The notes beneath the pieces were generated by a model that saw nothing but the letters and a program-made list of their open reading frames with translations, was not told where the DNA came from and did no database searches. A DNA stretch of 64,000 nucleotides from Morchella semilibera (Eukaryota > Ascomycota > Pezizomycetes > Pezizales > Morchellaceae): contig WBVU01000018.1 in assembly GCA_009192285.1 (NCBI GenBank), positions 310,001 to 374,000 of the forward strand, written 5' to 3'. Position numbers and translations under genes: made by a program. Within the stretch, counting starts at the first letter, position 1. Every line of letters begins with the position of its first letter. Below, piece after piece: positions 45,719 through 60,300 of the stretch.

Positions 45719-47240
45719 CTATTTTTGTATGTAAAAAGCGCCAAGACAGCGCCGAGTGGAACAGGTTCCAGACAACAAAGAAATAACCTTCACGGGTGTT
45801 CTTACAACACAGTCAGTTTTCAAGATATAAAATCGTGCTTTTAATATGTGATAGCCGAGAGGCAAATGAATATATTAAAAATTACAAAAGAATTTTTCCT
45901 TGATCACAGGAGGGGGAAAAATTCCCCAAAAAGATTGAGAATTGTATTAAGCATGAACAATGAAGACTTAAAATTATTTTAAGAAAATATTCGGGTAGGC
46001 CTATGTCTAAAGTATTATATTCCTGAGCCATTCCTTTATTAATTGTTTGGTTGTGGTGGAGGAATTATTCTTGTGGGGGTGATTGCCATGGGAGTGGAAA
46101 TGATTGAGGTGCAACATTATTACCTCCTACTTTTTACACCATAACTCTATGAGTTTTCAAGGTATCAAGGGACTCTTTCCAGAGCTGCTAGGTAACTAGC
46201 ATAAGTAGGACCACATACCTTCGTTTATAGGGTACAAGAGGGTCAAATAATCCCGGATTTTTATGGTAATTTAGTATAACCCACCCTATTTTACTAGTAC
46301 TTGGGGTTGCCTATCTTCATGGTTTTTTTGGATATTAACAAACCTTCTTCAAGGGAGCTAAGTGAGTAGCATCAAATGGGATATATAGTCTTGTTTCTAT
46401 TATATAGGGGGTCTTTGATTTCCGAATTCTATAGTTGTGTCATATAAGAGTTACTTAGTAAGATTTTAGTGTAACCCACCATTTGATACCTCACTTTGAC
46501 CCCACCTTTAAATATTGATAGCCTGGAATGAATCTAAGCTTACTATCGCATTCTTCTCTTCTTCATTCAACCATGACTTGCATCAAAAACTGTTTGGTTG
46601 TTGCAAAAAATAAGCTTAATGATTTTAGAAAGTCTAAATATAAAGTTGTCTGTAACAGAGTAACTGTCCCGGCGTCTTGGCATCGGTCTCGAGGGTTCGG
46701 TAGTCGAAGCGCTGTCGTGGTTGTTGAGGTAATGTTAAGTGAGAAGGAGGTATACTGAGGAGGGGGTGTCGTCATTAGGTTCTAGGAGGTTCGATGGCGT
46801 GATGGATTGGTAATGTAAATAGCGAAGATGGTGGGGACGAATATGAGGTGTGGTAGCGATGGGGTTCTTTTCATAGATACGTTAGGATGGGAGGACTGGA
46901 GTGATTGGCGGGGATGGGATTATTGTAAGCTCGGAGGCGGAGATGAGTCAGAGTAGGTTCTATGTGTTTCCGTTACACAGGAATATGAGTCATGGTTGGG
47001 GTTACGCGAGGATATGAGTCAGGCTTGGCTCCGGAATATTGGGTATATAAGGGAGGCAACGGCGCCTACTCCTGTACTTTCTCTTCTTTTCCTTTTCTCT
47101 TTACGCAACGTCTTCTGTAACTAGTATTCAATATACTTTATAGTCCCTACCTCTAGTGACTATCGCTGTCTAAACTCTCATACCTCTCCTTACCGAGAAG
47201 TATCGCTGTCACCTACCTACCCTATATGTCTCCGGAGAGA

Positions 47241-47302
47241 GCCATCTACTGGTATCTTCGCTTACACGTCGCAATCAGAGATTCCTTGTGGACTCTCTGC
47301 CC
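47241..47302 (+). repeat. LTR-like dispersed repeat, copy A
   Basis: The segment GCCATCTACTGGTATCTTCGC...CTGTGGACTCTCTGCCC-type wording matches 62131-62193 in the same orientation at most positions. With the upstream TATATAAG and pyrimidine-rich leader it looks like the 3' part of an LTR. The MITE at 47361 lies 60 bp further on. Confidence 0.45.
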
Positions 47303-47360
47303 CACTCTACTTCTTCTATAACTCGTGCCCTGTGGAACGAAGCTACACCGCCACCCCCTC

Positions 47361-47986
47361 CATCAGCAAACTCAACTTGTGACTGGAGTCTCCCAACAGT
47401 CTCCCGTATCACGGAGCGAGGCGAGGGCGTAGTCAGAGGTGCCAAGGTACACAACCGAGGCGAGAAAGCAGAGCGAAGCGAGGAGAGATGAGTGGGGGGA
47501 GGGGTACGGGAATAACCAAGAGTGGGGACACGAGGCAATAAGGATTACGGGGGCTATGGAAGTAGAGCGAAATCCCCGGAGGGGTTTGGTAATCGAGACC
47601 AGAGATCCTAAAGTACAGTATCGACTAAAGGGACAGGAAGGTTGCGTGAAGAAGAAAGGAAAGAAGGAAAACTCTACAAACGAGGGAGAAAGCTCCCTAT
47701 ATATAACCCTAGCCATCCTTCGCTGACTCATCCCATAGAATCCCATAGAACCTAAAGGAAATCCTTCGATTACCAATACATACGCACCATTACCTCATAA
47801 CGTCCTGCAGCAGAATCCCATAGAACCTTATAGAAAACCCTGACTAATCCTTCTTCCCGCAACATTGCAAGCATGTTCCACGCCGTGATATCCCGGGTCT
47901 CCTGAGAGTCTCCTGAGACCCCCGGATATCTTTTGAGTCTCCTGAGGTTCAGGAGACATTAGGAGACAAATGAAGTCTTGCTGATG
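47361..47986 (-). mobile_element. 137-bp MITE, copy 3, split by a solo LTR
   Basis: Terminal inverted repeats CATCAGCAA (47361) and TTGCTGATG (to 47986), flanked by the 2-bp duplication TC (47359-47360 and 47987-47988). Its two halves, 47361-47406 and 47896-47986, add to exactly 137 bp, the length of the two uninterrupted copies. It is in the opposite orientation to the copies at 53775 and 55323. The interruption is the solo LTR at 47407-47890. Confidence 0.88.
47407..47890. mobile_element. Solo LTR with 5-bp target duplication
   Basis: 484 bp beginning TATCACGG and ending CCGTGATA, flanked by TCCCG on both sides (47402-47406 and 47891-47895). It shares start, end, a GGAAGGTTGCGTGAAGA block, a TATATATA promoter-like block and CTTCCCGCAACAT with the gypsy LTR at 48453-48931, so it belongs to the same or a sister family. 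The internal region has been lost, presumably by LTR-LTR recombination. The ends are TATCA...TGATA rather than the usual TG...CA. Confidence 0.85.
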
Positions 47987-48054
47987 TCCTTGAGAGTTCT
48001 ATGGGGTTCTATGAGCAAGAGTATGAGTCATAGCGGACTGGTAGAGAAGGTGTG

Positions 48055-48373
48055 TTAAATAGCGGGGATAGAAGTTTTCCTTAATTCTTTCTTTCTTTTC
48101 TCTCTGTCTCGTCTCCCTGTTATTTCGGTACATAGGAATCTACTCCTATTTCTGAAAGCCATAGCTTCTTGTACCAAAAGACTCTGTCCTCTTGAAAGAG
48201 GAAATCCATAGTACCTCTCATCGTTCTCGTTGAGGTCCATCCGGTCCTCACTTTCCCTGCCCTGCACCCTTGTGCCTTTGTCCTTATCTTCGTCGGTTTC
48301 CTCGTTGCCCCGGCTGTGCGCCTCGTGTCCTTCTGCATCATCATTGTCATCTTCTGCTTTGCGTCAGGTTACT
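48055..48373 (-). other. Orphan coding-like fragment
   Basis: A minus-strand frame reads acidic sequence (NDDAEGHEAHSRGNEETDED) and then MDLNENDERYYGFPLSRGQ before stopping at 48055. No family is recognised. Part of it is inverted and duplicated next to the LTR (see the hairpin). It is likely debris of a mobile element or captured gene. Confidence 0.3.
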
Positions 48374-48442
48374 CCGTTACAGTAACCCGACGCAAAGTAG
48401 AAAATGACAATGATAATGCAGAAGGACTCGAGGAGTACAGCC
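48312..48442. repeat. Hairpin with 62-bp arms beside the gypsy LTR
   Basis: 48312-48373 and 48381-48442 are gap-free inverted copies with about seven mismatches, mostly transitions, around a 7-nt loop. Both arms encode the same acidic peptide on opposite strands, so one is an inverted duplicate of the other. The arm ends 10 bp before the LTR start. Confidence 0.85.
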
Positions 48443-48452
48443 AACACGATGA

Positions 48453-48931
48453 TATCACGGAGCCAAGCGGAGTACTGGGCGAAGCGAGCCAAGGTACACT
48501 ACCTAGGCGGGACGTAACAGTAATATTCGAGACGGACGAGGCGAAACTATGGAACGAGGTGAGACTATGAAGCAAGGCGAAGTACGAAGCAGGTCCAGAA
48601 GCCGGAGTATATTCTAAAAGACTACAAACTCCTGAAGATAGGAAGGTTGCGTGAAGAGGAAAGGAAAAGAACTATCTACAAGCGAGGGCGAGGCCCCTAT
48701 ATATACACCACATACCAGCCTAATAACTCATCCGAGTAACCCTGTACAGAACCCCAGAGAATCCCCCACGACATCCGCGCATCCTATCACCGAGCTTACA
48801 TATTCTTATCTCCTATTACCGCAACCGTATCTCCGACCCGAACCCTTGTCACCGAAACTCATAGAACATAAGGGAACCCCTAACTAACCTCTCTTCCCGC
48901 AACATCGCTAAGCACATTCCACGCCTTGATA
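48453..48931 (-). repeat. 3' LTR of the gypsy element
   Basis: 479 bp from TATCACGG to TTGATA, homologous in order and blocks to the solo LTR at 47407-47890. It contains a TATATATA block near 48706-48714. Confidence 0.85.
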
Positions 48932-48954
48932 GATATTAGGTCCCCCTCTGAGGC

Positions 48955-51900
48955 CTAAGTCCTCTTAGGCTTGCGTGGGTATCGTTCATGAAAATCTTTG
49001 ACTAACTCAGGAGAGTTGTCTAGATCACCGTAGGGTTGCCAGGATGGCTCATCATAGCCAGTATATCGAACGAGATACTCCAATCTTCCGCGTCGTTTTC
49101 GAGAATCCAGAATAGCATCCACTTCCCATTCTTGTTCACCTTCGATCTCAACGGGGGGCGGAGGCATTTGTATTTGACCTGGGAGGGGATCATTGGCGGC
49201 GGGCGAGAGTAGCGAGACGTGGAACACTGGATGAACTTTCATCGAGGCAGGTAGCGTAAGTTCGTAGGCATAGGGGCTAACGACGCGAGAGATCGGGTAA
49301 GGCCCGACTTGTTTCCAATCTAACTTCTTCGACGGCCGCTTGGTTAATAGTTTCCTAGTGGACAACCATACCTTATCCCCAATAGCATAACCCAGTGCTG
49401 GTATACGACTTGCATTGGCTGACTCTTCCTGTATCCGTTGAGCTCTAAACATTTCCGCTCGAAGGAAGTCAAACACTTCTGACATATCTCTTGCCATAGT
49501 ATTAGCCTGGTCCTCGTTCGTGGTAGTACCGTGCCGTAGGGGGCCAAAATTTATGCGTGGATGACGACCATAGTTGGCCTCGAAGGGAGAGAGCTTGGTT
49601 GACTCGGAGACGTGATTATTGGTAGAAAATTCTGCCATGGGTAGATAGGTCGCCCAGTTATCCTGTTGATAGTTCACATAGCTTCGAAGATATTGCTCCA
49701 TAATGGCATTAATTCTTTCTGTCCATCCGTTTGAGGGTGAAAACTAGTAGAATACCGGGGAGAGATCTCAAGACGCTCGCATAGTGATTTCCAGAAATCG
49801 GAGGTGAACTGAGTGCCGCGATCTGAAACTATCTTTTCTGGGAGACCGTGTAGTTTCCAAACGTTCTCCAAATACATTCGGGCGACGTCTCTGGCTCCTG
49901 ATTCTTCGGTACATGGAATAAAGTGTCTCATTTTTGTGAGACGATCGACGACGACAAAAATGGCATTGTAGTTATTACTAAGGGGTAATCCTGTAACAAA
50001 GTCCATTGAAACATCCGTCCATGGTGCTTTAGGAACTGAGAGGGGACGAAGGACTCCTTGAGGAATATTGCGATTTGCTTTGCTTCGGCGACAAATGTGA
50101 CAATTCATAACATAGCGATCGATATATTTCCGTATATTTGGCCAATAGTATTCGCGACTGAGCAACTCCAGGGTCTTTGCTCTACCCGGATGTCCTGCTG
50201 ATGGTTTGTCATGATACTCCTGAAGAAGCTTAAGCTGTAACTCCTCGTGTTCTGGTACGAAGAGCTTGCGTCGATAGAGAAGGAGTCCGTCTTCGTTTTC
50301 TGCGCATTCGGCAAGTGAAACTTGTTTTAATTGTTTCGTGCCGTCTCTCAGCATCGTAAGTACCTTATTGGGAGAGCTATCTTCTTGGTAAGCTTTTGCA
50401 AATAATTCTTGGACAGTGGGCGTTCCTTCAGCGGGTTCATTTGCCAAAGAACCCGCCAACAAACTTAGCTTATTATCCAAATTTTTTCTCTTTAGCACCG
50501 TCTGGTACTGATACGCGAGGCATTCATCCCCCTCCTTAGGAAGATCCCCTGATCGCCTGGTAAGTGCATCCGGTTTTCCTCCTTGCTTGCCTGGGCGAAA
50601 TTGAATAACAAAGTCAAAACGGGATAGAAATTCTGACCAACGAGTTTGCCGGCGATTTAGGAGCTTGGTTGACATAAAATATTCAAGGTTCCTGTGATCT
50701 GTCAGGACCTTGATAGGATACGAGGCTGTTTCCAAAAAATAGCGCCACTCTTCAAATCCCCTAATAATTGCCAAGAGTTCTTTGTCGTATATTTCATAGT
50801 TGCATTCCGCCGGGGTATGCTTCTTGGAGAAAAAGGCAACTGGGTGTAGAATTCCTTCGTTGTCCCTTTGTGACATAATGGCGGCTGAGACATAGTCGGA
50901 GGCATCTGTTTCCACAATAATTTCCCGGTCCGGGTCGAAGTGCCCAAGAATAGGAGCGGTGGTGAATGCAAGCTTGAGATCCTGAAAAGTCTTTTCCGTC
51001 TTGTCCGTCCATTTAAATACCACTCCTGTCTTTGTTAGAGCTGTCAGAGGAGCTACTACCCTTGAGTATGCATAGATGAATCGTCGGTAGAAGTTCGCAA
51101 ATCCTAGAAATTCTTGCACCTCTTTCAGGCAAGTTGGGGTTTCCCAATTCCTTATGGTAGCGACTTTGGGTTCATCCATCTTAATCCCTTCGGGTGTAAG
51201 GACAAAGCCGAGATACATTGTTTCCTTGACATGCCATTCACATTTTTCGGGCTTAAGGTGAACCTGATTCTCGTCGAGAATTCTTAGGACCTTGTCAACA
51301 TGTTCTTTGTGTTTTTCGAGAGTAGCCGAGTAGATAAGAATGTCGTCAAGATATGCGGTGGCGAAGTGATCAAGATAAGGACGGAGCATGTCATTGACCC
51401 AGTGTTGAAATGCAGCAGGAGCATTGGTCAATCCAAAGGGCATGACGGTATATTCAAAATGACCGTACCGCGTCCTAAATGCCGTTTTCCACTCATCTCC
51501 TTCCCTGATTCTTAACTGATGATAACCGTTGCGAAGATCTAGTTTGGTAAAGTATTTGGCTGAGGAGATGCCCATAAAAGTTTCCGGTGTTAGTGGTAGG
51601 GGGTGACGGTTCTTCACCGTCACTGCGTTTAACTTTCTATAGTCCACGCAAAGTCGGAGGGAACCATCAGTCTTCTTGACAAACAATACCGGGGAGCCTG
51701 CGGGGGAGGTACTATGTCGAATTCGTCCGTTGGATAAGTACTCAGCCAGGTAGTCTCGAAGTGCCTGTAGTTCTAGCCGGGTCATCCCATACATTGGTCC
51801 AAAGGGTACGGTTTTCCCTTCCTGTATTTCGATAGATAAATCATACTCTGTGCTATGAGGGGGAAGCTTAGACGCGTCAGGTTCACTGAGAAGATGCAAA

Positions 51901-52682
51901 TATTGATGATGTTCTTTGGATACAAGCGCTCGGGGGTCCTTGGGCGTTTGAGCCAGTAGGTCGTCAAGAGCCTTGAGGGTGGTAGAATATAATTTCATTC
52001 CTTTTCTTTTCTTGTTAATGAGTCTGTGGAATGCGTAGGAGGTAATAACTGAGATATTGGTTATTGTTTTGGTGAGGGGTTTAATAGAAATACCCTTAGC
52101 AATAACTTTAGTTTGATTGAGGGAGCAGTGTTGAACACAGTCAGGATAATCAAAGTGAATCTCATTAACTGCAGGAAGGATAGTAGTTGCATGACGGCGC
52201 ATCCAGGGAAGACCCATCACGATTGGATAGTGTCTGAGTTGAGTAATAAAAAAGGGAACGTCTTCCCTGTGGCCGTTAATGTCGAGACTGAGGATGACCT
52301 TATGGGTGACCTTTCCTGATTCGATAGGCCTACCGTCTATTACGTCTATGTGTCGAGGGAGAATAAGGGGGGTGGTCTTGAGTTTGTGGTGGCATACGAA
52401 GTCCTTATCTATGAATGCGTATCCTGAGGCGCCAGTATCGATGAGAGCATATGATGGGATGACAGAATCTTTATTTTGAGAAATAGAACAAGTTACGACT
52501 AATTGATTCCCATCCATATCCTTCTCCGAAACCGAAAACCCAGAAACCGAAATCCTAGAAAAGTCCTTAAACCGTCCCTGGAGTGAGCCACTCAATCCAG
52601 GGAAAAAATCTTTTAACGCCTCATTACCGGAGGCTTCTTCCTTCTCTTCTTCTTCTCTAATATCTACCCTGGCTCCCCTCAT
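48955..52682 (-). pseudogene. Gypsy Pol polyprotein with chromodomain, frameshifted
   Basis: Order along the minus strand: aspartic protease (ALIDTGASGYAFID), reverse transcriptase (LFVKKTDGSLRLCVDYRKLN, FGLTNAPAAFQHWVN, catalytic YLDD in AYLDDILIYS), RNase H (VETDASDY, KELLAIIRGFEEWRYFLE), integrase zinc-binding region (HPGRAKTLELL...CHICRRSK) and catalytic core (DVSMDFVTGLP, IVSDRGTQFTSDFW, HPQTDGQ). At 49705-49720 the frame shifts right after HPQTDGQ, and the first frame ends at 49674. The next frame (from about 49701) carries the rest of integrase (INAIMEQYLRSYVNYQQDNW, GYAIGDKVWLSTRKLL) and a chromodomain (EWEVDAILDSRKRRGRLEYL...YTGYDEPSW). The pattern fits loss of four bases from a CAGACAG-like direct repeat. 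Chromodomains steer such elements to heterochromatin. Confidence 0.93.
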
Positions 52683-53112
52683 CCTGGGGGGCTGGGTTCC
52701 TGGGAGCCGGCGCCTGCGGGCATTCCCTTACAAGGTGTCCTCCTTGTCCACAATAAAAACACCTATTCTCTACGCGACGGGCCTCTCTTTCCTGAGAGTC
52801 CGGGCGGCTACGACCTGCTGACAAATCCATAGGGGCCACTCCTCCGGGCGTATGGGACGGGTGGGCAACTGGGGGAGAGGGACAAACGGGGGCTTGGTAG
52901 CGAGGAGCCGGGGGGGGGCGGAGCTGAATACCGAGGGATAGGGGCAGCTGGAGCCTGATAACAGGGTGCGGGGAAAGCGGGAGCAGCGTAGCGAGGTGTC
53001 GGACGAGCTTGGGGTACGGGGGCCTGATAGCGAGGGCGGTAGCGAGCAGTGATCATCTGCTGCTTGTTATCCAAGCACTGGAGAATGGTGGCTAGTTCAA
53101 TGACGGTGGCGG
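52657..53112 (-). pseudogene. Gypsy Gag C-terminal part, frameshifted
   Basis: From the gap edge the minus strand encodes ATILQCLDNKQQMITARYRP and a proline-rich repeat (PRYQAP, PRYAAP, CYQAP, PRYSAP). At the C9 run (52911-52919) the frame changes: the repeat continues as PAPRYQAPVCPSPP in the next frame, then SHTPGGVAPMDLSAGR and a CCHC zinc knuckle CFYCGQGGHLVREC, ending at 52657. Pol starts in yet another frame overlapping the end of Gag by about 25 nt near a C6 run. The second change could be the natural Gag-Pol shift or another indel. Confidence 0.8.
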
Positions 53113-53265
53113 NNNNNNNNNNNNNNNNNNNNNNNNNNNNNNNNNNNNNNNNNNNNNNNNNNNNNNNNNNNNNNNNNNNNNNNNNNNNNNNNNNNNNNNN
53201 NNNNNNNNNNNNNNNNNNNNNNNNNNNNNNNNNNNNNNNNNNNNNNNNNNNNNNNNNNNNNNNNN
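53113..53265. other. Assembly gap (153 N)
   Basis: Left flank is gypsy Gag, right flank is a Plavaka transposase read toward its C-terminus. The missing Gag N-terminus, 5' LTR and transposase C-terminus cannot fit in 153 bases, so the gap size is arbitrary, or the join is wrong, or one element inserted into the other. Confidence 0.95.
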
Positions 53266-55267
53266 TTGAGATAACCCTCCAAATATTCAAGTGTACTCTT
53301 GGTATGATTCCCGTATTGAGCCATCAGGTGAAAGTCAATTAGTACCCGAACGCATTTCAAAGCCTTTCCGAAGTCAGCTATGACAGAGCTCCCTGGATTT
53401 CTCAGAGCCATCGCCAAAGCTCCCAGAACTATACGCCCTAGGTTTCGCATCTCTTTCCCCTGCCATTGCGTGGTTGCCCTATAAGGCTTGTTCGGTACTG
53501 TAAGCCGAGGATAAGGCCCAATCTTTGACAATGCTATATCGAACGCGTCGAGACGCCCGTGTTTCTTGAGAAATCCTTGAACCCATTCCATCACATGCTT
53601 TAACATTCCGAGGTAGATAGTATGCAATAGATCCGGTTTGATCAAGTCGTAAACCTTGCATCTCTGCATATCCCATAAAGCATTGAAGGGAGTCTTCAAA
53701 GACCTCGATACAAGTTATTCTACTGGTGATGTGTTTGTCGGGTTTTCATTAAACTGCTGTACCATCTCCTGGTATATCAGCAAGACTTCATTTGTTTCCT
53801 GATGTCTCCTGAGCCTCAGGAGACTCAAAAAATATCCGGGGGTCTCAGGAGACTCTCAGGAGACCTGGGAGACTGTTGGGTGACTCCAGTCACAAGTTGA
53901 GTTTGCTGATGTAGGTCTCTTGATCACGTATAGAGCTCTGCCGATAGCTTTCAAGCTTCTTATACTCCGCCTCACATCTTGGGCAGGCGAAATTGCTGAT
54001 GTTTTGCAACGAGGCGTGCTCAGGTTGGTCCGCGATCCACCCAAACAGTACAGGAAAACATAGCCGTTCATATCCATCTGCGCAGGATATCAACTCACCC
54101 TCCTCGCCAATACTTTTCAGGCTTTTAAAGATATCTTTGAGAGCGTTGTGCAGCGCCATCTGCGATTCTCGACGCAACGTTGCATTCGCACTCGTATTTG
54201 AACTGAGCTTAGGGCGCACTGGTAATAGCGCTAGGAGTACTAACGAGTGCCCAGAGACTTTCATTCTCACAGAGGAATTGATATTCCCAATTATGAGATA
54301 GATTGGCCATGCCTGTTTATCACCACTAAAGTTCGTCAGGTGAGTGCCATCCGAAGCACAGATTACCGGAACTAACGTTGAACCCTCAGACAGAATTCTT
54401 TTTGAGATCAGTCATGACTTTTCTGACTCTAACGAAACCTCCTGAAGATCTCAGAAAGCTTCTCCACACATGTGTTTCCTACCACCAGTTCCCTGTATGC
54501 ATTTCGCTGTAAATTCTCTCTCCCTTCCCGTTGTACTCCATTGACGGTGCAAATATAAGAGACTCCTTGAATGCCCGTTGTCCAAGGAGGAATGGAATAA
54601 TTGTCATAGGGTCGTGATACTAGTATGGTATGTTTTTCCCTCCTATAACAACCTCCGCATGGTTCCATGTTGACCTCTCTACGCAATCGTTCATTTCCTC
54701 CATTTTTCGTGTAAAACCTCGCCCATTTCTATAGGAGTTATGGCGATGGTCTCCGGGGGCATGTTGAAAGAAGCTATCGATACTTCCTTGTGATGCTTTG
54801 CACAAAATAAAGTACCGCGCCATCCGGAATTCATACGATGAGTTGAAAGGTTGCCACGGATTGCCAAGAAGTCGTTGTGCGTTTTCTTGGTAGCCCTTAG
54901 AGAGATATGGAGCCTCCTTCGCACCTTCGTAGACCGTGGTGAATGCATCACGAGTAACTCTCAACTCCTCCTCACAATCCTCCCTATTGTCTACAAAGTA
55001 AGACTCTGATTCTAGGTCTGAATCTCCAGCAGCTTGTTGAGAGAAGTTAGAATATGTAGATGACCTGTCCTCGCAACTAGCATCATCCAGATCAGAGCCA
55101 TCTGAAACCTTGTGAGACTCCTGTAGTCGTTTGTGATTCTCCTGCAAAAGATCGCATTGAGTTGTGAACCATCCATCCACTTCGTTAGGGTGATTATTCC
55201 GTAGGTGCTTCTCAAAGTTCGCTGAGGAGCTGTATCGCTTGCTGCAAAAAGGACAGGTGGACTTCAT
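53266..55267 (-). pseudogene. Plavaka-type DNA transposase pseudogene
   Basis: Begins at ATG 55267 with a C2H2 zinc finger (CPFCSKRYSSSANFEKHLRNNH). Then LLGNPWQPFNSSYEFRMARY and SQGSIDSFF, the core block ASDGTHLTNFSGDKQAWPIY plus LIIGNI, a Cys pair (FACPRCEAEY), and DLIKPDLLHTIYLGMLKHV with LKKHGRLDAFD before the gap. These blocks in this order are typical of fungal Plavaka elements (CMC-like cut-and-paste transposons). The frame is broken by in-frame TAG after KNIPY (about 54618), another TAG about 110 bases on, a frame change near 54390, TAA at 53715-53717 and a 137-bp MITE at 53775-53911. Removing the MITE plus one TA gives a continuous frame across its site (RDQETY into QEMVQQF). Confidence 0.85.
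53775..53911 (+). mobile_element. 137-bp MITE, copy 2, inside the Plavaka transposase
   Basis: Ends TATCAGCAA (one base off CATCAGCAA) and TTGCTGATG; TA duplicated at 53773-53774 and 53912-53913. About 95% identical to the copy at 55323. The interior contains several CTCAGGAGAC-like words in both orientations, like subterminal transposase-binding motifs. Confidence 0.92.
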
Positions 55268-55322
55268 TAGGTGTTGCGATAGCTTCCATGGCTCTCGGAG
55301 GTATCAAAATTACTACTGCCAA

Positions 55323-55459
55323 CATCAGCAAGACTTCATTTGTCTCCTGATATCTCCTGAGCCTCAGGAGACTCAAAAAATATCCAGGAGTCTCAGGTGA
55401 CTCTCAGGAGACCTGGGAGACTGTTGGGAGACTCCAGTCACAAGTTGAGTTTGCTGATG
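55323..55459 (+). mobile_element. 137-bp MITE, copy 1, upstream of the transposase start
   Basis: Ends CATCAGCAA and TTGCTGATG; AA duplicated at 55321-55322 and 55460-55461. It lies 55 bp upstream of the transposase ATG. It carries the same CTCAGGAGAC words as copy 2. Confidence 0.92.
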
Positions 55460-55461
55460 AA

Positions 55462-56189: not shown

Positions 56190-57388
56190 ATGCCTCCCAA
56201 CGCTACTAAGAGTACCCCTGGGAAGGTAGTATATAAACACCAAATGGTTGTTCCCTAATTACTATACATTAGTTTCTAACATACCTCCAGTCCGGTGGCA
56301 AGTTGAAATGCCTCTCTCATCGTACTCACGATACCTTACAAAGCACTGCCAAAAGCCCTAGAGTAGAGATCCCAACCCCCCGAAAGCGTCAGCGCCAACC
56401 AGTCCCTGAATCCGAAGACGATATTGCCATAAGATCCTGTCATTCGAACCCAAAAGCTCGTGATAGCCCTCCCCAAAGCTCTCCAAGATTGTTCGCAACC
56501 CCCCGAAAATGTGGGCGCCACTCAGTCCTTGATTCCGAAGACGAGATTGCCACACGACCCCATCGCTCGAATCTGCAGGCTCCTGATAGTCCTGACATCA
56601 CTCCAGGAAGCCCTGAAAGATCTCGACCAACCCTTTGAAAGCGTCTGCACCAGCCTATCCCCGAAGCCAAAGAGGAAGAGTCGACTATCCTCTCACACAG
56701 AGTGGGAAATACCTGGAGTTACGACAGTCCACCACCAGACCTCACCCTTAAACAGGCGCTGACACCCACGAAGACTGCTCCAACACCGCCCAAGGCATCG
56801 CAAGCACCCAAGGCCCCCACAGTTTGGAAAAAGGCAATAACAGCAGCAGATATCGCATTAGCTAAAGCTTATCCAAGCACACCAGAGACTATCACATCTC
56901 ACAAAGCCCTAGAAACAACTTCCAGAACCACAGCAAAAAGTTCCAAAACCACATCAGGAACTTCCAAAACCACCTCAGCATCAGCAACACGGACCGCTGT
57001 CGCAGGCCCAAGCATTCCAAAAGTCACCTCCAAAGCCCCAAAAGCAATAGCAACAGCACCAACCACCCGACAAGATCTGCGGTCTGGGCCATCCTCTACT
57101 ACTAATTCCCGGCCTGCTAGGACACCCCCAAGAGCCATCCACAAAGCTCCTAGAGCTATCATGATATCCAAGAGCGCACATCAAAACAAAGATAGAGACA
57201 AGCACAATCATCCTGAGGACGGAGACAAAAACGAGGACAAGGATGAAGACGAGGACGGCGATGGAGACGACAAAGACGAACTTCGCCACGCCTCACAAGG
57301 ACGTCATCAGAGACAGAAAAAAACAAGGCTTTCAAGGCAAGGTGGTCAAAGGAGGTTGTTTCGATGGACGCAAGCACTGCCAAGGTGA
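56190..57388 (+). pseudogene. Basic low-complexity protein gene with premature stop
   Basis: Exon 56190-56225 (MPPNATKSTPGK) joins exon 56291 onward in phase 0 (donor GTAGTA, branch TCTAAC, acceptor CTCCAG). The second exon holds three tandem, diverged units of about 35-40 residues, each with a (P)RKRQRQPVPESEDDIA-like core. The third unit is interrupted by TGA at 56636-56638, where the other units have CGA (Arg). The frame then stays open for another 249 codons: a Thr/Lys/Pro/Ala-rich part, then a strongly acidic stretch (NEDKDEDEDGDGDDKDE). Downstream segments (57243-57476 in another frame; about 57490-57858) may be further exons or remains. No family recognised. If the TGA lies in an unrecognised intron the gene could be intact. 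Confidence 0.45.
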
Positions 57389-60300
57389 CTTTGAGATTGG
57401 CCGCCTCCCCAAAGGGTTACAACAGATTGAGGAAAGACCTCGCTGCAGAGCTGACAAAAACAAGATAAATCAATAAAAGAACTAGCGGGCTTACTCATTT
57501 TAATGAGTTGGTGGCATGGCTTCTTGAACAGAGGCCTCTGGTAGGTTTGGCTACGATCATGGGAGGCCAGAGGAATAGCGCTAGGGCCAAGACACAGGAA
57601 GCAGTTACCTGGCTAGTGGTCGATGTCAGTCGGAAGGAAAAGGTCTTTAAGGGCTTAGGGGATTGGGAATTCACCGAGATTGACGGTCACGACCCCGAGC
57701 TGGACGCTGACAATTTGGCTGATCTGGCGCAAGGGCTCTCAGGGCACTCGCCAAAGCGCCAAAAGCTATCGCCACAATCTGAGCGGACTAATATCTGGGT
57801 CACCGTTGTCGACCCTGACCGTTTTAATGAATACGATCCTGGATGTACGGAGACCTAAGCGCGTGAGCGCTATCTAAACCAAAGCAGGCAGCTCGGCACC
57901 GATTTCAAATGCCGGAATTCCCCAAAGATATGCACTCTACATTCCCCGCGGCCCGTCGCGGGGAACACACTTTGGGACAAGCAGCCCACATGCGCACATA
58001 ATTTAAGGCTCCTGAGGCTTACGCCTTGGCTCTGTCATATACCTTGGTCCAAAATAAATGCGGCAATATCCAAGAGGCTTGGATAAGAGTCGCCCTGCAT
58101 GAAGCCAGATGTACAGTCCACCACACGGCTTGGCCCTCGAATGTACCGGCCTCGGGAATTCTTTGACATCGCTCGATGAAACCAACCAGCCCAACCGCGA
58201 AGAGGAGCCAGCCTGGGTCCGCCATAAATGGACACTGAGGAGGTAGAAGCCTGGAATTGCTTCGGAAGTCTTGGCGAAACCTCTCTGCTGCTTCTTGACC
58301 CCTACCTATCATCAGGCTCACCAGAGCTAGCGTTGAAACGCCACCTATTGAAGGCTCAGTGTCATTAGAACCCCCTACACACCGTGAGACGTGAAGCACA
58401 GCGGCCCTGGCGACTCTGCTAGCCAGCTCACGTCTATATAGCTTCAGCCACTAGTGAAACGTCGGACTCATATGGTTCACGTACTACTATAGAATTTTAC
58501 CTCCAGCGACTGGAAAACTCTGAGTATTGAAGCGGCCTGAGATTTACAGAGATTACAGTGATAGTTGCAGACACAACCCCTTGAGCTGTGGAACTAGGCT
58601 GAGTCCGTGTATGAACAGAGAAAAGTCTTTGTCTTGTTATTTTATATGTCTCTAGGTAAAAACCTTCTAACAATATTGTTCTCTCTCGTTCGCACTTTCC
58701 TCTTTTCCGCAGCGCCCTGATGGAGGGTGTATAGGATAGTAGCACCCTGCCTCGGGTCCCCTCGCAACTACTTCAAGTATTTTGAGGCTTCCGTCAATCA
58801 GCTAGTTACACTCGGTCTACAAATATCGAGATCACTGTGGTCGCTGTGTCTCTCGGTCAGTTGCCAGGAACCGAGCAACTCCTAAACCTACTAATCGCGT
58901 GGCAGTGAGTCTCGCGTAACCGCTTCCCTAAGGCCCTTGACAACTCCGCAAACACAGCGTTTCCAGCACTAGTAGGAAGGGAGAGAGTTGGATCCTGCGT
59001 GGAGATCCACTCAAGAGCAAGCTCGGTGTGGTCGGCAGCAGGACGTCTAACAATTGTGTAAAGCCTTCAAGTGCGATCGACCCAAGAGGAAACCCGCGGC
59101 GAACGGCCGAAGGCGCCGGCGCCGAACGCAGGGGCGGTGTCAGAGAGTTGAACGACTTCCTTCGTGTATCTCGCTCCTCGGCGTCGAGCAAAACCGAACT
59201 TAAGCACGGTTTAGTAGTGCCGTGATCTTCCTGTGTGGATGGTGTGATTGTGATCCACTTGTGCCTACGATTGGCGGCGAAGGCGCTGGGTCCCGGACCA
59301 TCTCCTCACCGGCGTTTTGTTACTCCCGCTGCCTCTTCTTTTTGTATATTTGTAGTCTCTAACACACAGGATCGAACAGTGGGCAGGAAGGACAATCATC
59401 CTACCGCTCCTCGAGGCTCCGTCGACACGAAGACTCTCAGCCGGCAACGCCGCACCAATCCATGCGGCGACTTATCAGTTCAATGACTGCCGTGTGGGCC
59501 GCGACGATCAGTGTTTATCGCGACCGAGATTCTAGTGAAGTTGCCTTCGCATGCAATTTGTAAGCGCGTACTGTGAATTAACTCGTACGTCTCAAAAGCT
59601 GACCCACAACAGATTTTTTTCTGGCTGCAGCTGTGGCCCACTATTTTTGTTAGGGTAGTAGTTAGTGACCTCCCAAGAGCTTACTAGACTACAGGAGGTT
59701 TTCTGCGAGGCCGCTTTGGCGATTATCACGGCGTGGGGAGCGCGGTTTATTTTTGGCGTTAGCGGGAAGAGGGATTAGTCTAGGAGCGATGCGCATCTCT
59801 TGTCTTGCGGTGTTTCGGTATTAGGGGTTTGGTCAGAAATAGCGCCGTGTTTCCGGATTGATCACTCAAAGGATTATGTCGGAGCGTGGCTTCAGAGATA
59901 ATGGCGTCGTTGAGAGATTCATAATGGAAGTTCTGGTCACAGGGAGGACTATCGAGCGTGTGAGCTCTATCGGAAGATAGATCGGTCTCGTAAGAGTTAC
60001 TCAAAAATCTCCTATATAGGGGCGCTTGGTTTCACTCGCTACGCGGCTTGTTAGATAGTTTCTTTCTTTTCCTCTTCAGCCAACCTTCCTATTTCTAGGA
60101 GTTTGTAGTCTGTGAGGAATATATCCTTAAAGGACTCTAGCTTCGTCTCACGGTTTCAGCCGCGCATGCATTCGTCTTCGGCGTCCACGCCTTCGGCTCT
60201 CTCTCCTCGGTTTTCGTTATGTTGCGCGCTCCTCGCGTGTCGATCTGGAGCGGACGATTGAAGCCGGGCGGCGTGAGGGGTCGGTGTCATAATGCGTCCG

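What the first reader, a model, noticed from the sequence alone, without database searches (positions are those of the whole stretch)
47361..55459. A 137-bp MITE family with a 2-bp target duplication, three copies in 8 kb
Copies at 47361-47986 (minus its insert), 53775-53911 and 55323-55459 are each exactly 137 bp, share CATCAGCAA/TTGCTGATG ends, and are flanked by TC, TA and AA duplications respectively. Duplication length is constant but its sequence is not, so this is not a TA-specific Tc1/mariner MITE. The interior is packed with CTCAGGAGAC-type words in both orientations, like the subterminal repeats of CMC/CACTA-like elements. I do not recognise the family.
Basis: seen in the sequence. 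Interest (0 to 1): 0.75.

Follow-up and report, generated by a model that had tools for sequence, protein, structure and literature searches.

The report
Miniature Plavaka transposons in a fungus
The three 137-base repeats are copies of a very common miniature transposon, probably in a morel fungus, whose ends and 2-base insertion footprint match the Plavaka group of DNA transposons, so it is a new family of a known kind.

Summary
Three 137-bp copies lie at the stated places, one split by a 484-bp insert, with TC, TA and AA duplications. The genome holds 434 exact matches to a 28-base left end. Of 42 distinct full-length copies examined, all are 137 bp and 40 have a matching 2-bp flank of variable sequence; shuffled flanks give mean 5.5, maximum 13. 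Empty sites of copies 2 and 3 were found in 12 and 11 distinct paralogous loci. Best reading: a non-autonomous element of the PlavakaB type. A 2025 paper gives PlavakaB the termini CATCA..TGATG and 2-3 bp duplications. In this genome a roughly 12-kb element coding for a Plavaka transposase (PF18759) ends in CATCAGCAAG/CTTGCTGATG, makes 2-bp duplications and carries CTCAGGAGAC-type words. Copy 2 interrupts, and copy 3 lies just upstream of, a decayed Plavaka transposase gene. The insert in copy 1 looks like a solo LTR. The host is probably a morel, judging by protein similarity. The direct parent was not identified: similarity to the found element is short. New member of a known kind.

The parts
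47361..47986 (-). MITE copy 1, 137 bp of element split by a 484-bp insert; TC duplication at 47359-47360 and 47987-47988
47407..47890 (.). 484-bp insert in copy 1, probably a solo LTR (TATCACGG..CCGTGATA), with TCCCG duplication at 47402-47406 and 47891-47895
53775..53911 (+). MITE copy 2, TA duplication at 53773-53774 and 53912-53913; interrupts a Plavaka transposase gene
55323..55459 (+). MITE copy 3, AA duplication at 55321-55322 and 55460-55461; just upstream of the same Plavaka gene
53097..53714 (-). piece of the host Plavaka transposase gene beyond copy 2
   Evidence: PF18759 E 1.4e-05, below the curated cut-off on its own
53890..54411 (-). piece of the host Plavaka transposase gene
   Evidence: PF18759 E 2.9e-45
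54620..55303 (-). N-terminal piece of the host Plavaka gene with a C2H2-like zinc finger; stop codons follow
   Evidence: weak zf-C2H2 match, below cut-off; 2 TAG in the genome match G000:C15:364470-364676
56639..57388 (+). open frame in a stretch shared with other Plavaka b copies, possibly an accessory gene of that element
   Evidence: no Pfam match

Best explanation
The 137-bp repeats are a high-copy non-autonomous (MITE) family of the Plavaka group, PlavakaB type. The element is too short to code for a transposase. A Plavaka transposase made by a full-length element recognises the CATCAGCAA/TTGCTGATG ends, probably helped by the GGAGAC words inside, and joins the element to a target cut with a 2-base stagger, which after repair leaves a 2-bp duplication. 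Shown: the ends, the constant 2-bp duplication, empty sites, and a transposase-coding element in the same genome with the same terminal 10 bp, the same duplication length and shared inner words. Inferred: that this transposase or a near relative moves the MITE, the role of the inner words, and the cutting chemistry.
For: 40 of 42 copies with a 2-bp duplication, shuffled maximum 13. Empty sites: copy 3 in 11 distinct loci (AA in 10, AG in one), copy 2 in 12 distinct loci (TA in all 12); tandem-array units with and without the MITE in L082. Plavaka family c: 6 of 7 fetched right-end stretches hold AATCTTGCTGATG followed by varied bases; left ends CATCAGCAAG in L081 and L082 with flanks TA and AA equal to those at their right ends; 11 of 17 end pairs genome-wide share the 2-bp flank. 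The c gene matches PF18759 at 4.5e-54 and shows CPRC, HFRGH and SELAH. Shared 12-13-mers between MITE copy 3 and the c ends, none with the c coding part. Published PlavakaB ends CATCA..TGATG, 2-3 bp duplications (section read).
Against: Apart from the terminal 10-11 bp and a few inner words, the MITE is not similar to the c ends, so derivation from c by deletion is not shown; one of the shared 13-mers depends on a base peculiar to copy 3. The words are clearly over-represented at the c left end (5 of 500 shuffles) but weakly at the right (35 of 500) and not at the b end (71 of 500). Six of 17 c end pairs have unequal flanks. No tree with Kojima's families was made. Two MITE copies lack the duplication.
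Confidence: 0.88

Rival explanations
1. It is a Plavaka MITE, but its immediate parent is another Plavaka family, unsampled here or extinct; family c shares only ends and words. (A refinement of the best explanation, not exclusive of it.)
For: Similarity to c and b ends is short. Other CATCAGCAAG ends exist that are closer or different, such as two with TTGCATCTGTCTCC-like continuations.
Against: Family c is multicopy, shares 12-13-mers in both terminal 500 bp with the MITE, and has its own short derivatives of 152-326 bp.
Confidence: 0.5
2. A MITE of another CMC/CACTA-like lineage (EnSpm, Mirage or an undescribed one) whose ends resemble Plavaka by shared ancestry or chance.
For: CMCT lineages mostly share CA..TG ends and 2-5 bp duplications (passage); inner repeated words are also known from CACTA elements (recalled).
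Against: The terminal 10 bp are identical to those of two Plavaka families of the same genome. Fungal EnSpm in that paper has CAC..GTG and 3 bp (passage), while 0 of 42 copies here show 3 bp.
Confidence: 0.08
3. A TA-specific MITE (Tc1/mariner, PHISTA or ESTA type).
For: TA is the commonest duplication, 9 of 40.
Against: 31 of 40 duplications are not TA; nine other dinucleotides occur.
Confidence: 0.01
4. Copies 2 and 3 are the two repeated ends of one larger element rather than two insertions.
For: They lie in the same orientation 1.4 kb apart around a transposase gene.
Against: Each has its own duplication, and related loci lack both MITEs while keeping the surrounding sequence.
Confidence: 0.01

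Closest known systems
PlavakaB DNA transposons (Kojima 2025, PMC12730594: sections 20 and 22 read, other passages seen)
   Same: CATCA..TGATG ends and a 2-bp duplication; a PF18759 transposase in a partner element with the same ends.
   Different: The 137-bp family is non-coding and far shorter; Kojima's Plavaka families of that section are from Agaricomycotina, this genome is probably a morel; no TET/JBP match was found by Pfam in the six c frames tested.
PlavakaA (same paper)
   Same: 2-bp duplication.
   Different: Ends there are TGT..ACA.
Fungal EnSpm/CACTA elements
   Same: Inverted ends starting CA and repeated words inside the ends (the latter recalled).
   Different: CAC..GTG ends and 3-bp duplications in that paper (passage).
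Non-autonomous elements of Marasmius oreades (PMC8290104, passages seen)
   Same: That work sorts non-autonomous families by the ends and duplications of autonomous ones, Plavaka included.
   Different: Different fungus; its supplementary figure of end motifs was not seen, so overlap in motif is possible.

Membership tests
PlavakaB (as a non-autonomous member) | termini 5'-CATCA..TGATG-3' | tested here: met
   Majority sequence of 42 copies starts CATCAGCAA and ends TTGCTGATG; a few copies, window copy 2 among them, differ by a base.
PlavakaB (as a non-autonomous member) | 2 or 3 bp target duplication | tested here: met
   2 bp in 40 of 42; empty sites.
PlavakaB (as a non-autonomous member) | Plavaka transposase in an element with the same ends | tested here: met
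   Family c, PF18759 E 4.5e-54, ends and duplications read. Met for the partner; the MITE itself has no gene.
PlavakaB (as a non-autonomous member) | transposase groups with PlavakaB in a tree | not tested
PlavakaB (as a non-autonomous member) | the MITE is moved by that transposase | not testable with these tools
   Needs an excision or integration assay.
MITE | short, high-copy, uniform length, inverted ends, target duplication | tested here: met
   42 of 42 are 137 bp; 434 exact left ends.
EnSpm/CACTA (fungal) | CAC..GTG ends and 3-bp duplication | tested here: not met
   CATCA..TGATG; 0 of 42 with 3 bp.
Tc1/mariner or other TA-duplicating elements | TA duplication only | tested here: not met
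   TA in 9 of 40.

The most novel reading that the evidence does not exclude
The seven GGAGAC/GTCTCC words of the majority sequence, at positions 20, 30, 45, 74, 85, 94 and 105 (within each cluster 9-11 bp apart, about one helical turn), form a compact array of transposase-binding sites that makes this 137-bp element a better substrate than the 12-kb masters, whose ends carry the words more sparsely; a master family with different inner ends thus moved it in trans to hundreds of copies.
Probability: 0.3. Interest if true: 0.5.

Novelty: new member of a known kind. Interest (0 to 1): 0.36.

Why it matters
It ties a high-copy MITE to the little-studied Plavaka group, extends the published CATCA..TGATG and 2-bp rule to what is probably an ascomycete (morel), and supplies clean empty sites and a full-length candidate partner in one genome, so that Plavaka transposition could be assayed. 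In the held library only Kojima's paper contains both Plavaka and Morchella; the searches for Morchella with MITE and with MITEs listed 5 and 15 papers, none of which by title is about transposons of a morel (listings only).

Tried and rejected
The TA-specific reading and the reading of copies 2 and 3 as paired ends of one element were rejected by the duplication spectrum and the separate empty sites. Plavaka family a (L061/L080) has an end in CCTGATG and was not followed further. Plavaka family b: one end, CATCAGCAAGCTTGC, is clear, the other was not reached in the fetched stretches, so its duplication was not tested. Pairing MITE left and right ends on contig C1 (77 left, 67 right, exact ends only) gave 39 pairs at 136-138 bp and six candidate longer pairs of 621 bp to 11.4 kb, which were not read because the fetch did not complete; most unpaired ends may simply have a mutated partner. 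Pfam on six frames of the c element found only Plavaka above cut-off and no TET/JBP gene. Folding copy 3 as single-stranded DNA gives z -4.06, as expected of an element with inverted ends and inner palindromes, and says nothing about function.

Full report
Observation. With the insert and its second TCCCG set aside, copy 1 is 137 bp, as are copies 2 and 3; the three are 129-130 of 137 identical, with flanks TC/TC, TA/TA and AA/AA. Copy 2 starts TATCA, a small departure from the stated ends. In the genome (G000, 56.76 Mb, 23 contigs) the 137-mer had 958 first-look candidates, of which 40 were scored and matched. A 28-base left end occurs exactly 434 times and a 19-base right end 436 times, with 0 for the reversed patterns.

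Duplication. From the window and the loci fetched by then, 42 distinct full-length copies were taken; 6 partial and 5 same-flank copies were dropped. All 42 are 137 bp; 40 have a 2-bp match and 0 a 3-bp match, with TA 9, AA 7, CA 5, GA 4, AT 3, TG 3, TT 3, TC 2, GT 2, AG 2. Dealing the right flanks out anew gives mean 5.5, maximum 13 in 2000 shuffles. The sample favours well-preserved copies (mean divergence from the majority sequence 2.9%). The two copies without a match are both in L013.

Empty sites. Copies 2 and 3 lie in a Plavaka element of family b. The flanks were joined with one duplicate and compared with all other loci held, leaving out L001-L003 and L083. The empty site of copy 3 appeared in 13 loci, 11 distinct, because L062 and L037, and L079 and L035, cover the same places; AA in 10 of the 11, AG in L040. 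That of copy 2 appeared in 14 loci, 12 distinct, TA in all 12. A third case is L082, where units of a tandem array read CTCTCCCGTAATCCCTG and two units hold the MITE as CTCTCCCGTA-MITE-TAATCCCTG; the two may be one insertion copied with the array. For copy 1 the joined flanks found nothing; a stretch of L001 about 80% identical on one side and without the MITE is weaker evidence.

Partner. PF18759 (Plavaka transposase) gave 128 matches in the genome, the window pieces among them. A multicopy family, called c here, was followed to its ends. Six of seven fetched right-end stretches contain AATCTTGCTGATG, followed by TA, AA, AA, AC, TA and TT; L063 and L064 have TC and TA. The left end is CATCAGCAAGCCTATTC in L081 and L082, preceded by TA and AA, which equal the bases after the right ends of the same elements; these two are about 11.7 and 12.1 kb long. 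Both ends were then sought in the genome with one outer base restricted (29 left, 34 right). Nearest same-strand pairs within 30 kb number 17, and 11 of them share the 2-bp flank. One of the 11 is the 12.1-kb element just named; two unequal pairs on C9 and C10 look like one site; the 22- and 27.7-kb pairs may hold other insertions or be chance pairs. Pairs of 152, 294 and 326 bp with equal flanks and one of 1097 bp with unequal flanks look like short derivatives of c; they were not read. The c gene matches PF18759 at E 4.5e-54 and shows CPRC, HFRGH and SELAH in an alignment with ten relatives or pieces of its kind plus one more window piece, in line with the C(2)C and H(3-4)H motifs and final E described in the paper (passage).

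Link between MITE and partner. CATCAGCAAG is shared by the MITE and by c and b ends, and the MITE copy 3 and c share TCTTGCTGATG. The terminal 500 bp of c also share CTCAGGAGACTC, AGGCTCAGGAGA and CTCCTGATATCTC with copy 3 (the last depends on a base that the majority sequence lacks), while the c coding part shares no 12-mer and the b end only the terminal 10-mer. GGAGAC/GTCTCC words: 5 in copy 3, reached by 0 of 500 shuffles; c left end 3 (5 of 500); c right end 2 (35 of 500); b end 1 (71 of 500). The majority sequence has seven. Similarity is otherwise poor, so c is a candidate helper, not a proven parent.

Known kind. Kojima 2025 (PMC12730594; sections 20 and 22 read, passages, outline) states that PlavakaB elements have CATCA..TGATG ends and 2 or 3 bp duplications, and groups Plavaka with EnSpm, Mirage, Chapaev and Transib. 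The Plavaka families of that section are from Agaricomycotina. 'PlavakaB' occurs only in that paper in the held library. Plavaka with 'miniature inverted-repeat' gave two papers, and the passages seen of both describe no such family. A Marasmius genome paper sorted non-autonomous elements by the ends of autonomous ones (passages); its motif figure was not seen. Passages of two morel genome papers mention no Plavaka or MITE; the first counts a few CMC-EnSpm elements.

Surroundings. Copy 1 is split by a 484-bp repeat with a 5-bp duplication. Its relatives (41 matches, 40 candidates scored of 337) include same-strand pairs whose starts lie 5.7-6.8 kb apart on C16, C19, C20, C21, C22 and C23, as expected of LTRs; here it stands alone. 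About 1.1 kb around copy 1 is itself absent from related repeats in 14 loci, with gaps in the alignments. Copy 2 interrupts the host Plavaka gene, which also has stop codons.

Verdict. Real, well supported and a new member of a known kind. Moderate interest: it gives Plavaka a compact substrate with clean empty sites and a candidate enzyme in one genome.

Noticed in passing
window 48955-52727: Reverse transcriptase, RNase H, integrase and chromodomain frames on the minus strand: a Ty3/Gypsy-type retrotransposon, lying where the host Plavaka gene breaks off.
   Followed up: no
window 47407-47890: 484-bp repeat with TATCACGG..CCGTGATA ends and 5-bp duplication; relatives occur in same-strand pairs 5.7-6.8 kb apart, so probably an LTR with unusual ends.
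   Followed up: partly
window 46869-47996: A stretch of about 1.1 kb that includes copy 1 is missing from related repeats in 14 loci; what it is was not worked out.
   Followed up: partly
window about 57854-58330: Compared with L083 and L062, many one-base insertions appear here, as in decayed or poorly corrected sequence.
   Followed up: no
L081 5644-6957 and L063 1356-2666: Two related frames of 437 and 436 aa, opposite in strand to the transposase, in Plavaka c; none above a Pfam cut-off. They may be accessory genes.
   Followed up: partly
L082 1642-3295: A tandem array of a unit of about 101 bp inside Plavaka c, with the MITE carried in two of its units.
   Followed up: partly
G000 contigs C9/C10, C12/C13, C21/C22: Matches fall at nearly equal positions on these pairs of contigs, as if two haplotypes had been assembled.
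   Followed up: no
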